DNA from: Thalassovita autumnalis
GTDB taxonomy: Bacteria; Pseudomonadota; Alphaproteobacteria; Rhodobacterales; Rhodobacteraceae
NCBI RefSeq assembly: GCF_001458255.1
Contig: NZ_CYSB01000005.1
Span: 124,001-188,000, forward strand
DNA length: 64,000 nt
Direction: 5' to 3'
A model generated the notes under the pieces. It was not told where the DNA came from. It was given only the letters and a program-made list of their open reading frames with translations, and searched no databases. Each line of letters begins with the position of its first letter. Position 1 is the stretch's first letter. Positions 32,596 to 38,869 of this stretch are shown piece after piece. The position numbers were made by a program, and so were the translations under genes.

Positions 32596-33486
32596 ATGAC
32601 CAAAACCCCCGCTGACACGGCTGGCGCTGCTACCACTGCCCCGAAAATGACCCCGGAAGACGCAGAGGCCCGCCGCGCCGTCAAACCGGTGATTTGCTAC
32701 CCGAATGACACTTTGGCGCCGCCTGATCTGGCGCTCTATCACGCGGCGCGGCAGACGGCGGTTAAGGTAGGTGAGGTCACGGTGCCCCCGCGTGACGGCG
32801 CCAGTTTCACCGTCAAAGCCGGGCAGTTTTTCCGCATCACCTCAATCGAGGGGCCGCAGGTGGGCGATCTGAACCTGTTCAACGCCAATGACCTGAGTGA
32901 GAAGTTCTACTCCGGCAAGACCCGCGCGCTGCATGGCACCCACATCACCACCGGCGAACGCATGTGGTCCAGCCACCCCTATCTGCGCCCGATGGCGACG
33001 ATCACCGCGGATACGCTGGGCTGGTATGGGATCGATGAATTTGGCGGCTCGGTGCATGATGTGATCGGCACCCGCTGTGATCCCTACACCAACAACCTGC
33101 TGAGCGGGGGGCAGTATCATCATTGCTGCCACTCCAACCTGACCCGCGCCCTTGCCGATCACGAAGGCATCGCGCTGGCCGAGGCGGAACCGCAGGTGCA
33201 TGATGTGCTGAACGTCTTCATGTGCACCGGCTTCACCCGCGACACGGGTCAGTATTTCATGAAAGCCAGCCCGGTGCGCCCCGGCGATTATCTGGAGATG
33301 TTTGCCGAGATTGACCTCCTGGGGGTGCTGTCTGCCTGTCCCGGCGGCGATTGCTCGTCTGAGCATTCCTCGGATGAGGCGGCCTGCCACCCGATGCTGG
33401 TGGAGGTCTTTGCCCCGGCCGAGGGTGCATTGGGCGAGTGGGTCAGCCCGCCGGTCAACGGCTACGATCGCAGCCACGGGCGGTGA
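32596..33486 (+). CDS. DUF1989 / urea carboxylase-associated family protein
   Basis: 296 aa with the family signatures: DGASFTVKAGQFFRI (about 74-88), GPQVGDLNLFNA (about 91-102), a THITTGERMWSS block, and CHSNLTRAL plus a C-terminal SACPGGDCSSEH cysteine segment (about 246-257). Some members act as carboxyguanidine deiminase subunits, but this single-gene form beside an SHMT-like gene may have another substrate. RBS AAGGAG precedes the ATG. Confidence 0.8.
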   Translation: MTKTPADTAGAATTAPKMTPEDAEARRAVKPVICYPNDTLAPPDLALYHAARQTAVKVGEVTVPPRDGASFTVKAGQFFRITSIEGPQVGDLNLFNANDLSEKFYSGKTRALHGTHITTGERMWSSHPYLRPMATITADTLGWYGIDEFGGSVHDVIGTRCDPYTNNLLSGGQYHHCCHSNLTRALADHEGIALAEAEPQVHDVLNVFMCTGFTRDTGQYFMKASPVRPGDYLEMFAEIDLLGVLSACPGGDCSSEHSSDEAACHPMLVEVFAPAEGALGEWVSPPVNGYDRSHGR

Positions 33487-33502
33487 TGAATTTGGGGAGT
33501 GT

Positions 33503-33535
33503 GCGGGGCGCTGCCCCGCGCCCCGGAGTATTTTT
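33503..33535 (+). terminator. terminator-like hairpin after the DUF1989 gene
   Basis: GCGGGGC/GCCCCGC 7-bp stem with a 3-nt loop, followed after a short GC-rich stretch by ATTTTT. It also lies at the 3' end of the converging SHMT-like pseudogene. It resembles a GC-rich 3'-end element that I recall being frequent in Roseobacter genomes. Confidence 0.6.
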
Positions 33536-33552
33536 GAAACGTTGAAAGCGAT

Positions 33553-34757
33553 TCAGCTTTCGTGGATGAACTGCAGCTGGTCAAAGCTGGCCCGCCACTC
33601 TGCCACTTCGGCAGCTTGGCCAGATGCGGCATATCCGCAACCGTCATGCCAAAGCGCACCAGTTCCGGCGTACCGATCCGCAACCCGTTCATATCCCCCG
33701 CCACCTCAGCGATGGGCAGGCCGATCCCACAGGCCAGGAACCCCGCCTTGCGCAGATGCTTTGAGGCCGCTTGGCCACCGCCAAACTCTGCCGCCTCTAG
33801 TGCAAATTGATGGGACAGTGTGGCGCCTGCGTGGGTTTTAAACGGGGTGAGGCCTTCAGCCTCCAATCCCGCGGCCAGCGCCTGCGCCGTGTCGATCATC
33901 GCCTGGGCGTAAGCCCCGGCCATGGTCGCGCCAATCCAGCATCGAGACTGCAAGTGCTGCGGATTTGGCGGCATCGAAATTGGCGGTCATGCCGGGAAAG
34001 GCAATGGCGTCCAGCCGCTCGGCAATCGCGGCCTCATTGGTTACAATCAACCCTGATGGCGGGCCGCCCAGCGATTTATAGGTTCTCATCGTCATCAGAT
34101 GCGCGCCCTCGGCCAGCGGGTTTGGCCAGGCTTTGCCGGTGATCATGCCGCATTGGTGGGCGGCATCAAACAGCACCTTGGCGCCGACCTGATCAGCGAT
34201 GGCGCGGATTTCGGCCACCGGATGTGGGGTCAGGTTCAGGCTGCCGCCGATGGTGATCAGCTTGGGCTTTACCTTTTGCACCAGTGCCTCCAGCGCGGGC
34301 AGATCGACGGTGTAGCCATCTGCGGTGACCGGGGCCATATGGCTCTGCAGCCCGTAAAGTCCGGCACAACCTGCGCTGTGGTGAGTGACATGGCCACCAA
34401 TGGCGCGCGAATCTCGGCAAACTGTGCTTCAAACACCTCCGCGGCAAGGGCGGCGGCGATCACCTCAATCTCTTCGATGGCTTCCAGCCCCATCTCATAT
34501 TTGTCACCGGGATAGCCCAGAGATGGCCTTGTGCCGAGGCCCGAGGCCAGCAGCGCCTCGGCGCGCGGGTTCATCACATGGGTGTCGGGGTTGAGGTTGA
34601 AGCAATCGCGTTCGTGGATCTCTTTGTTCTGGCTTGCCAGCGCTTCCACCCGGGCGGCCAGTGCGGCGCTGCCGGTGCCGCGGACCGCGGTGCTGATCTC
34701 TTGCACCCGGGTCTCACAAGGGGCGGGCACCCAGTCCCGTTTGGCGAGTGTGGTCAT
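33553..34757 (-). pseudogene. serine hydroxymethyltransferase-like PLP enzyme, three lesions
   Basis: Homology runs from MTTLAKRDWVPAPCE at 34757 to a canonical end EWRASFDQLQFIHES with stop at 33553, but in three frames. Lesion 1 (about 34418): AEIR is followed out of frame by IGGHVTHH, with roughly 27 family residues missing. Lesion 2 (about 33920): the frame shifts within DHG/AYAQAM by a single-base-type indel. Lesion 3 (about 33610): after DMPHLA a short deletion and frameshift precede EVAEW. The PLP lysine region TYKSLGGPPSG remains. Ancestral role: SHMT-like aldol cleavage of beta-hydroxy amino acids; now surely inactive unless these are sequencing errors. Confidence 0.85.
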
Positions 34758-34858
34758 GGTGGCATCCTTTCCTGAGGCCTTGGATCTTGTGTTTAAGGAT
34801 TGGCGCAATAAGGGCTGGGCGCAAATCAGATTTCCTGTAGGGTAGGCGTAGAAAAACT

Positions 34859-36908: not shown

Positions 36909-37077
36909 GTGATGACCTGTTCGTTTGCTGGTTCTGGCCGCGATGGCCCGGGTAAGAGGCGCTAGGTTGACGGGATTTCCCGCCGAGGGTCAAGGGGAGC
37001 GGGGGCAGAGAAAAAAGATGTGCAAATTCACTTTTGTGGCGTAATCTGGCGGCATTTCCACCTTATGGGAGAGTAAG

Positions 37078-37287
37078 GTGACACAAAAAGATACTGCAGA
37101 AGATATTCAGACCCCCGAAGACTTGGCCCAGTCGTACCTTACCTTTGCGACAGATATTTCACGCCAATTGCTTGCCGCGACCGAACGGCAGAACGCAGCA
37201 CAGCACGCCCAAATGCAGGACGTTGCAAAGTGGTGTCAGGCGATTTTGTCTGGCCAGTCAATCGGGGGCGCTGATGACGCAGACTGA
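37078..37287 (+). CDS. small R-body operon leader protein
   Basis: 69 aa from a GTG at 37078 with GGGAG 5 bp upstream. It is mostly helical and Gln/Ala-rich (QLLAATERQNAAQHAQMQ, about 35-52). It does not show the RebB core ITDAVTQ...ENAVA, but its size, helical content and position 36 bp before the first clear RebB gene suggest it is a member of the R-body locus. It may be an assembly or nucleation factor; no function is known. Confidence 0.65.
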   Translation: MTQKDTAEDIQTPEDLAQSYLTFATDISRQLLAATERQNAAQHAQMQDVAKWCQAILSGQSIGGADDAD

Positions 37288-37323
37288 CTTAAGACCCAAC
37301 AGATATTTAGGTGGAGGGTATTT

Positions 37324-37638
37324 ATGGCGAAAAAAGACACTGCAACCGAAACCCCCGGCGTGAATGAGCAGGTTACCGATGCGGTGACGCAGGCCAACGT
37401 CAAGGTCCTGTCAGAAGGTCCGGCCATGGCGATGGGCAACCTCTATCAGAGCATGGCGCATTCCACCGGGATCATGATGGAAAACGCCGTTGCCTCGCAG
37501 CACCAGGCCAATAGCGCGACCCAGGCGGCCACCACCCAAGGCGTGATGATGCTTTATTCCATCGATGATGCCTCAACCGGGGCAAGCGCCGAGCGGCTTG
37601 CCGGATTTGATGACGTGAAAAATAAGAAGAAGGGTTAA
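37324..37638 (+). CDS. RebB family R-body protein (1)
   Basis: 104 aa. Contains the killing-trait/RebB core: VNEQVTDAVTQANVKVL (about 13-29), LYQSMAHSTGIMMENAVASQ (about 43-62). R bodies are ribbons of small Reb proteins rolled into a cytoplasmic cylinder that can unroll explosively, for example on acidification in Caedibacter. A lysine-rich C-terminal tail (KNKKKG) is extra compared with the next paralog. RBS GGAGGG precedes the ATG. Next gene starts 3 bp after the stop. Confidence 0.88.
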   Translation: MAKKDTATETPGVNEQVTDAVTQANVKVLSEGPAMAMGNLYQSMAHSTGIMMENAVASQHQANSATQAATTQGVMMLYSIDDASTGASAERLAGFDDVKNKKKG

Positions 37639-37641
37639 GAC

Positions 37642-37872
37642 ATGGCATTTCCAACCAGTGTTAATGATCAGATCACCGATGCGGTGACACAAGCGAATGT
37701 CAAAGTTGTGGCCGAAGCGCCCGCAATGGCGGCGGCGGGGCTCTATCAGACCTCGGCGCATTCGTCCGGCATCCTGATGGAAAACGCCGTGGCGGCGCAG
37801 CAGGCGGGCAGCACTTTGATGCAGGCGGTGATGACGGCGGCGGTGAAACAGCTGCTGAAGGCAGGGGGCTGA
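37642..37872 (+). CDS. RebB family R-body protein (2)
   Basis: 76 aa, close paralog of the preceding gene: VNDQITDAVTQANVKVVAEAPAMA (about 7-30) and LYQTSAHSSGILMENAVAAQQ (about 34-54). Compact form with only a short C-terminal amphipathic extension, close to the classical RebB size. It sits 3 bp from both neighbours and is probably a main ribbon subunit. Confidence 0.9.
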   Translation: MAFPTSVNDQITDAVTQANVKVVAEAPAMAAAGLYQTSAHSSGILMENAVAAQQAGSTLMQAVMTAAVKQLLKAGG

Positions 37873-37874
37873 GC

Positions 37875-38105
37875 ATGGCGGAACCAACAGAAGTCAACGG
37901 GCAGATCACCGACGCGGTGACACAAACCGTCGTTTTGTCACTAGGGTCTGCGCCTGCGTCGGCATTGATGACCCAGCAGCAGGTCTGGTCCCACGCGATG
38001 GGCCTGGGGTTTGAAAACGCCGTGTCCCGGCAGCAGGCAGGTCAAACCCTGGCCGAGGCGCTGCTGGCCGCTGCGATGCAGCCCAAGGCAGGAGGCACGT
38101 CATGA
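37875..38105 (+). CDS. RebB family R-body protein (3), divergent
   Basis: 76 aa. The N-terminal VNGQITDAVTQ and the ENAVSRQQAGQTLAEALL helix are conserved with the two upstream paralogs, but the middle region (VVLSLGSAPASALMTQQQVW) has diverged and lacks the LYQ/AHS motif. This suggests a specialised subunit rather than a duplicate. The stop overlaps the next start (ATGA). Confidence 0.85.
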   Translation: MAEPTEVNGQITDAVTQTVVLSLGSAPASALMTQQQVWSHAMGLGFENAVSRQQAGQTLAEALLAAAMQPKAGGTS

Positions 38106-38446
38106 GCGAAGCAAAAGCAACAGCCGCGCCAGAGAAAACGGCGCTGAATTCGCAAGCGTTGGAGGCGGCCAAAACCCTGCGCGAACTGGTGGCCAAGAAC
38201 CCCAACGAGCTGGCCAAGGCCGGTCTCAGCCTGGCGCTGTCACAATCGGCTGCGATTGCCTTGCAGGATGCCACCGATCACATGCGCCGGATGCAGATCC
38301 TGTCTGAGGCAGGTGTGGCGCGGGCAATGGCGCAGCAAGATCCGGCGAAAGCGCAGGCGCTGGTGGAGGCCGCGACCCAAGCGGCGGCATCAGCCGGTGA
38401 GGTGCTGGCGAAAACCGGTGAAGTGGCCCGGTCCTTGCTGGATTGA
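38102..38446 (+). CDS. R-body operon protein, distant RebB-like
   Basis: 114 aa, Ala/Gln/Glu-rich and helical. The central SLALSQSAAIALQDATDHMRR...GVARAMAQQ region (about 42-80) has the same rhythm as the RebB core but little identity, preceded by a basic-acidic N-terminal helix. It overlaps the divergent RebB gene by 4 bp, so it is translationally coupled and a likely structural or assembly component. Function unknown. Confidence 0.7.
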   Translation: MSEAKATAAPEKTALNSQALEAAKTLRELVAKNPNELAKAGLSLALSQSAAIALQDATDHMRRMQILSEAGVARAMAQQDPAKAQALVEAATQAAASAGEVLAKTGEVARSLLD

Positions 38447-38869
38447 TCTGCCCGTTGCTGACTGAGCCTAGCCCAAAAACACCGGCCTGGAAGTCGCTAT
38501 TTTCTGGCATTCAGGTCCGTGGTTTCGCCCGCAGATACCTCGCCATGCCCGACAATGGCTGCTTCCAGCAGGACAGCGCTGCCGTTTCAACTCCCGCCCC
38601 TCCGCTCTGGGGCTGAAAACGCGCGGCGCGTGGAAGGGTGCAGCCGTTCCCCCGCTTTGGGGAGTTCGACGCAATTGACGCGCCGCAGAAACAGCGACAC
38701 CCAAGATGCAGATCTAACTGCTTGATCGCCATATCGTGCGCGCCACCAGCGCCGACCTGCGGCTTGTGTGCGTCTTTAATCTGCCGCTCAGTGGGCGTGA
38801 GGTGCACCGGGCAGATGGCAGCTACGCGGTGAGTGAAGGCTGATATCTAGTGGTCAATTCGGCTTGGGA
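38447..38869. other. 423-bp gap after the R-body operon, with a possible gene remnant
   Basis: No supported gene. A short open tail on the plus strand ending at 38843 reads [25 protein letters not shown], the style of a glycoside hydrolase family 13 C-terminus (hydrophobic strand then VCVFNL). It is too short and is closed by a stop 40 codons upstream. It may be the remnant of a deleted gene. The rest shows no feature. Confidence 0.3.

What the first reader, a model, noticed from the sequence alone, without database searches (positions are those of the whole stretch)
37078..38446. Compact five-gene R-body (Reb) operon
Three RebB/killing-trait paralogs with the ITDAVTQ...ENAVA core lie tandemly, 2-3 bp apart or overlapping, flanked by a 69-aa gene and a coupled 114-aa gene. 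R bodies are rolled protein ribbons that extend on a trigger. In Caedibacter they deliver toxicity to paramecia; in free-living marine bacteria their role is unsettled. No known regulator, sigma factor or toxin gene is adjacent, so control and cargo are open.
Basis: partly seen in the sequence, partly recalled or inferred. Interest (0 to 1): 0.78.

Follow-up and report, generated by a model that had tools for sequence, protein, structure and literature searches.

The report
Compact all-Reb R-body operon
A marine bacterium carries a small five-gene set that probably makes an R-body, a coiled protein ribbon that can spring open; three genes are clear ribbon proteins, the two flanking genes look like distant relatives of them, and the same set recurs in other bacteria without the usual control genes inside it.

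Summary
The operon is real at the stated coordinates. The three central genes match RebB (PF11747) at 100, 84.4 and 59.1 bits (cut-off 24) and are the genome's only matches. The flanking genes belong to the module. The 114-aa protein is a full-length homologue of what by size and order is HP1.2, an accessory of published Group 1 reb clusters, and distantly Reb-like. The 69-aa protein has no Pfam match over threshold; its family aligns weakly to the C-terminal part of Reb-like proteins. The order [69-like]-[3 or 4 reb]-[114-like] recurs in 10 loci (Thalassovita, Mameliella, Pelagimonas, two others) at three chromosomal sites. Three of 9 Thalassovita genomes have it; the same site is empty in the other 6. 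dN/dS against G007 is about 0.10. No regulator, sigma factor or toxin gene lies inside the module, but G007 has a LysR-like gene next downstream. Best reading: a reduced R-body operon made of Reb-superfamily genes, a new variant of a known kind. Ribbon formation, trigger, target and payload are untested; no structure prediction was obtained.

The parts
37078..37287 (+). 69-aa first gene (GTG start), with a relative in the same first place in all 10 compact loci; weak similarity to the C-terminal part of HP1.4 and Reb
   Evidence: no Pfam, NCBIfam, PHROG or PADLOC family over threshold
37324..37638 (+). reb gene 1 (104 aa), PF11747; in a set of 36 proteins nearest to a Reb of the Ruegeria pomeroyi cluster
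   Evidence: 100 bits; L049_6375, 100 bits; its place in the tree is unresolved
37642..37872 (+). reb gene 2 (76 aa), PF11747
   Evidence: 84.4 bits
37875..38105 (+). reb gene 3 (76 aa), PF11747; groups with the last reb gene of the other compact loci
   Evidence: 59.1 bits; 13-row clade, 99/95: 10 last-reb rows plus the 3 Mameliella 114-like proteins, which may be there by long branches
38102..38446 (+). 114-aa last gene, start overlaps reb gene 3 by 4 bp; HP1.2-like, distant Reb relative
36909..37077 (+). upstream gap to the divergent GNAT gene, presumed to hold the promoter; no sigma-70-like site and no RebR- or PraR-type site (up to 1 mismatch) found in it
38447..38869 (.). downstream gap; 38535-38727 matches the LysR-like gene region of G007 and the sequence from 38723 on matches G007 from within its cupin-like gene; reads as a deletion scar, not as part of the module

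Best explanation
This is a reduced R-body operon. Shown here: three Reb proteins, followed by an HP1.2-like protein whose start overlaps the last reb stop, preceded by a 69-aa protein with weak Reb-like sequence; a fixed order in 10 loci; purifying selection; presence or absence as one unit at a fixed site in Thalassovita. Inferred: reb 1 and reb 2 are the ribbon subunits; reb 3 and the 114-aa protein are made in a set ratio by translational coupling and act in nucleation, edge or assembly control; the 69-aa protein is a half-Reb that caps or chaperones. The ribbon would sit coiled in a fraction of cells and extend on a trigger such as acidification inside a grazing protist, breaching its membrane. 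With no regulator in the unit, the host's own circuits must control it. No dedicated payload is encoded in the unit.
For: PF11747 matches. Same order in 10 loci at three chromosomal sites. 114-aa family to HP1.2-like proteins: profile probability 96.9, E 1.6e-10, 113 columns; to Reb: probability 80.4, E 1.3e-5, 75 columns; each 0 of 60 column shuffles and 0 of 80 block shuffles as high. The 114-aa model finds 9 of 385 class genomes, all 9 among the 15 with PF11747; 6 score 39.9 bits or more, the other 3 (25 bits or less) lie on reb frames. 69-aa family to HP1.4-like proteins: probability 73.9, E 2.8e-5, 0 of 60 and 0 of 80; the Mameliella alba member's best Pfam match is RebB, E 0.021, below cut-off. 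dN/dS about 0.10. From papers: A. caulinodans needs a non-Reb gene of its operon, AZC_3784, for R-bodies (PMC5527310); RapA co-localises with RebP1 in P. aeruginosa (PMC8322103).
Against: The 69-aa link to plain Reb is weak (probability 6.2, E 0.006); the window's own member and that of L101 have no RebB match; the two flanking families show no link to each other (13 of 60 shuffles as high). In Thalassovita aquimarina the first reb gene of the same locus has an in-frame stop and lacks the ITDAVTQ signature. Six of 9 Thalassovita genomes do without the unit.
Confidence: 0.72

Rival explanations
1. A degenerating remnant of a larger reb cluster that has lost regulators and partners and no longer makes ribbons.
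For: HP1.1 and one large Group 2 partner are absent from the genome; the sister locus in T. aquimarina has a broken first reb gene; deletion scar just downstream.
Against: All five frames are open and under purifying selection between the window and G007; the same five-part set, not random losses, recurs in 10 loci of at least three named genera.
Confidence: 0.15
2. Reb-family proteins here form a different assembly (filament, scaffold or dormancy-linked body) rather than a ribbon that breaches membranes.
For: No toxin or regulator inside the module in any of the 10 loci; the accessory set differs from that of clusters with proven R-bodies.
Against: Reb 1 and reb 2 keep the Q(I/V)TDAVTQ, PAMA and ENAVA stretches shared with Reb proteins of other clusters.
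Confidence: 0.1
3. The 69-aa or 114-aa protein is a payload carried by the ribbon.
For: At strong scores both are found only with reb genes in the genomes searched, and no function is known.
Against: The 114-aa one and perhaps the 69-aa one look Reb-derived; no enzyme or pore domain in Pfam; shared ancestry with the ribbon protein suits an assembly role better.
Confidence: 0.05

Closest known systems
Group 1 reb clusters (Raymann 2013, PMC3583457); here Azospirillum brasilense plasmid L050 and Eleftheria terrae L052
   Same: Tandem reb genes plus an HP1.2-like protein of about 115 aa; in Azospirillum the last short reb-like gene overlaps the next gene by 4 bp
   Different: The window genome lacks HP1.1 and has no fourth PF11747 match that could be HP1.3; the 69-like gene comes first; reb 1 is nearer to a Ruegeria Reb
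Group 2 reb clusters (Ruegeria pomeroyi DSS-3 megaplasmid L049; L. alexandrii and P. aeruginosa PA14 as described in PMC3764935 and PMC8322103)
   Same: Main Reb protein (reb 1 to SPO_RS21855, 100 bits)
   Different: No Crp/Fnr regulator, sigma factor or large hypothetical partner beside the window operon; one large partner absent from the genome
Caedibacter taeniospiralis rebABCD (as described in PMC3583457)
   Same: Small operon of Reb paralogues plus one very small protein
   Different: Plasmid of an obligate endosymbiont; RebC could not be compared, no sequence on hand

Membership tests
RebB family (PF11747) | Match over Pfam gathering score | tested here: met
   Reb 1-3: 100, 84.4, 59.1 bits against 24. 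The 69- and 114-aa proteins do not meet it
Group 1 synteny (Raymann 2013) | HP1.2 protein beside reb genes | tested here: met
   Probability 96.9, E 1.6e-10, 113 columns, 0 of 60 shuffles; the comparison proteins were taken as HP1.2 by size and gene order, not by accession
Group 1 synteny (Raymann 2013) | HP1.1 protein of about 360 aa | tested here: not met
   No match in G000, G001, G007, G225, G775; found in both positive controls G434 and G562
Group 1 synteny (Raymann 2013) | HP1.3 protein | tested here: not met
   Only 3 PF11747 matches in the genome and no gene of that size in the operon; the HP1.3-like protein of G562 does match PF11747. No HP1.3 profile was run over the genome
Group 1 synteny (Raymann 2013) | HP1.4 protein | tested here: inconclusive
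   69-aa family to HP1.4-like proteins: probability 73.9, E 2.8e-5, 0 of 60 shuffles; but first instead of last in the operon, and no single-sequence match over cut-off
Group 2 synteny (Raymann 2013) | HP2.1/HP2.2, sigma factor and Crp-type regulator near reb | tested here: not met
   None beside the operon. Genome-wide only one protein of the R. pomeroyi cluster (463 aa) was searched: absent from G000, present in 4 of 4 Group 2 relatives given; HP2.1, HP2.2, sigma factor and Crp were not searched genome-wide
R-body producer | Coiled insoluble ribbon that extends on a trigger | not testable with these tools
   Needs electron microscopy

The most novel reading that the evidence does not exclude
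The five genes form a self-contained R-body type of their own, a cassette built from Reb-superfamily parts only, including a half-length Reb (69 aa) and an HP1.2-type Reb with an added C-terminal stretch. It passes between genomes as a unit, carries no regulator and no payload, and would show that ribbon assembly needs nothing outside the Reb superfamily.
Probability: 0.35. Interest if true: 0.62.

Novelty: new variant of a known kind. Interest (0 to 1): 0.4.

Why it matters
Raymann 2013 described reb loci by regulators and large unknown partners and found no conserved domain in HP1.2. A 1.4-kb unit that lacks those partners, yet keeps two accessory families in 10 loci, points to a minimal part list for a ribbon. 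The Reb kinship of HP1.2 may already be implied in Dorr 2026, which leaves HP1.2 out of its list of proteins without Reb homology; the 69-aa family and the fixed five-part module are what I could not find in print. Intact, broken and empty states of one site within Thalassovita give a natural test of what the operon does in marine bacteria.

Tried and rejected
Cargo nearby: in the window I see no further gene of the module between the operon and the acylphosphatase. G007 has LysR-, SDR- and cupin-like genes there (names recalled from sequence), fragments of which remain in the window. They look catabolic and I did not see them beside the operon in the flanks read for Mameliella, Pelagimonas, G775 and ih5, so I rejected them as cargo.

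Regulator sites: RebR-type (18 in the window, shuffles mean 18.7) and PraR-type (38, shuffles mean 29.3, 6 of 100 shuffles as high) patterns with up to one mismatch; none lies in 36909-37077. This is weak as an exclusion, since PMC5527310 reports that the true PraR sites match the consensus only with two or three substitutions. The one sigma-70-like site found lies inside the first gene (37078-37107). Comparing 230 bases upstream in 10 loci by eye gave no shared motif.

Phage origin: reb 1 has no match in 50,697 phage records and none in the IMG/VR scan (354 pattern matches, none confirmed). PHROG family 32040 does match the three Reb proteins. Not followed further.

The first genome-contig scan with the single 114-aa protein found nothing; the alignment-based one found 8 loci. 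The 114-aa protein has no match in plasmids. Solved structures: none for reb 1; prohibitin-2 at E 0.48 for the 114-aa protein, taken as chance. RebC of Caedibacter and AZC_3784 of Azorhizobium could not be compared, no sequence on hand.

Tree: 128 short rows, many forks unresolved, bootstrap not settled; rows under 25 bits or 50 aligned residues were dropped beforehand; the Mameliella 114-like proteins and one Group 1 HP1.2-like protein came in as Reb rows. Compact-locus rows do not form one clade (4 changes). Used only for the reb 3 grouping. Rows labelled Group 2 there include T. aquimarina's second cluster, for which one search found no Group 2 partner, so that label is unsure.

Full report
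OBSERVATION. They are the only PF11747 matches in the 4.36-Mb genome. Junctions are 36, 3 and 2 bp and a 4-bp overlap. Operon G+C is 59.7% against 60.1% for the window; third-position G+C is 70-71% in four genes and 54% in the 69-aa gene.

HOST. The window's genus-mate G001 is taken to be Thalassovita aquimarina KMM 8518, because its contig has the same length (283,673) as the named record; G225 likewise as an uncultured Pelagimonas (668,925). So the window is most likely a Thalassovita species, a marine genus of Rhodobacterales (placement recalled).

DISTRIBUTION. PF11747 occurs in 3 of 9 genomes of the genus, 10 of 394 sampled from the family, 9 of them over cut-off, and 15 of 385 sampled from the class, one of them (G573) a marginal 16-position match. 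Each count includes the window genome.

A RECURRENT FIVE-PART MODULE. I read 31 stretches, a 10-kb piece of the window and 30 loci, then 8 named loci found with the 114-aa alignment. The 69-aa model matched 5 of the 31. The order [69-like]-[3 or 4 reb]-[114-like] is found in 10 distinct loci: window, G007, T. aquimarina (its first reb broken), Mameliella alba, Mameliella MMSF_3455, Mameliella CS4, Pelagimonas phthalicica, uncultured Pelagimonas (4 reb), G775, and a MAG titled Mesoflavibacter ih5, whose 62.7% G+C makes that title doubtful and which resembles G775 closely. The 69-like gene was found in 7 of the 8 named loci; two (L095, L101) were already in the model, so 5 of 6 are new finds, ih5 being near kin of a model member. 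The eighth, MAG OFTM58 (L102), has a 114-like gene after one reb, a second reb on the other strand and no 69-like match. The last reb and the 114-like gene overlap by 4-11 bp in 8 of the 10 loci and are 1 bp apart in 2, with starts chosen by hand.

LINKAGE. The 69-aa model over 385 class genomes gives two strong matches, the window and G775 (110.8 and 108.3 bits, both in the model); the other 29 genomes with a match at E 0.1 or better score 20.1 bits or less. Over 394 family genomes it gives the window (110.8), G225 (93.1) and one 23.2-bit match in a genome without PF11747, taken as chance. The 114-aa model gives 9 of 385 class genomes, all 9 with PF11747.

SITES. The module sits in three neighbourhoods: between a GNAT gene and an acylphosphatase gene (Thalassovita), after a dihydrolipoamide-dehydrogenase-like gene (Mameliella, Pelagimonas), and between thiolase-like and histidase-like genes (G775, ih5) (names outside recalled from sequence). 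In 6 of 6 Thalassovita genomes without PF11747 the GNAT gene lies within about 300 bp of the mutase gene (5) or the acylphosphatase gene (1), and none of the five module proteins matches there. So the unit comes or goes whole; which, is not shown. No regulator lies inside the module in any locus. Beside it, G007 has a LysR-like gene next downstream; the window has one three genes to the left and L093 an AraC-like gene a few genes off.

WHAT THE FLANKING GENES ARE. Against 36 proteins of four reb plasmid records, the 114-aa protein's best matches are the 116- and 115-aa genes that follow the HP1.3-like gene in Azospirillum and Eleftheria (E 7.4e-8 and 5.4e-7); by size and order these are HP1.2 of Raymann 2013. 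Profile comparison confirms it over the full length (probability 96.9) and also links the family to Reb (80.4). The 69-aa family aligns to HP1.4-like (73.9) and HP1.3-like (45.9) proteins better than to plain Reb (6.2), and not to HP1.2 or the 114-aa family (10 and 13 of 60 shuffles as high). Block shuffles that keep local pattern did not reach the observed score (0 of 40 at each of two block sizes for each of four comparisons). I read all five genes as Reb superfamily: certain for three, good for the 114-aa one, tentative for the 69-aa one.

SELECTION. Window against G007: dN 0.0204 and dS 0.2062 over five genes; reb 2 and reb 3 have no amino-acid change; the 69-aa gene alone rests on 9 changes (5 silent, 4 not). 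Against T. aquimarina dN/dS is 0.13 for reb 2 and 0.27 for the 114-aa gene, with dS near saturation; the 69-aa value could not be computed.

MECHANISM. Ribbon making is inferred from family membership. R-bodies have been tied to reb genes in C. taeniospiralis (as told in PMC3583457; parts 1-4 of 6 and passages read), A. caulinodans (PMC5527310; passages and sections 6 and 10) and P. aeruginosa PA14 (PMC8322103; abstract and sections 6 and 9); in L. alexandrii they were seen in cells that carry reb genes (PMC3764935; passages). Control there involves a Crp/Fnr-type activator and PraR (A. caulinodans), a sigma factor and a transcription factor (PA14), or a nearby sigma factor (L. alexandrii); none of these was seen in this unit.

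NOVELTY. Dorr 2026 (PMC13430693; abstract, results, first of two parts of the discussion) reports groups 2 and 3 as favoured in Rhodobacterales, and its main text names neither Thalassovita nor Mameliella. It lists HP1.1, HP2.2, HP2.3 and HP2.4, not HP1.2, as lacking Reb homology, so HP1.2's kinship may be known. A search for the genus names with R-body terms listed 16 papers, none of which by its title concerns this type; R-bodies with Rhodobacterales and with Roseobacter listed 3 and 2 papers, of which I opened only L. alexandrii and Dorr 2026. Supplementary tables could not be read, so such loci may be listed there. Verdict: new variant of a known kind, interest moderate.

Noticed in passing
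window 33462-34808, - strand: A PLP-enzyme gene (SHMT-like, named from its sequence only) appears split over three frames (33462-33974, 33856-34338, 34269-34808), either a pseudogene or assembly errors.
   Followed up: no
window 38535-38869 and L037:10661-12812: G007 carries LysR-, SDR- and cupin-like genes between the operon and the acylphosphatase; the window keeps only fragments, a likely deletion scar.
   Followed up: partly
G001:C23 (L039): T. aquimarina has a second set of reb genes near a contig end, with one divergent reb frame that holds an in-frame stop.
   Followed up: partly
L102 (MAG OFTM58): Two reb genes on opposite strands lie around a 161-aa frame on the - strand, with a 114-like gene overlapping the + strand reb: another arrangement of HP1.2-like and reb genes.
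   Followed up: no
PHROG family 32040: The three Reb proteins match a viral protein family of unknown function, although no phage record matched reb 1.
   Followed up: partly
L098 (CP051228.1): The record titled Mesoflavibacter has 62.7% G+C and its module resembles that of an alphaproteobacterial genome (G775); the title is doubtful.
   Followed up: no
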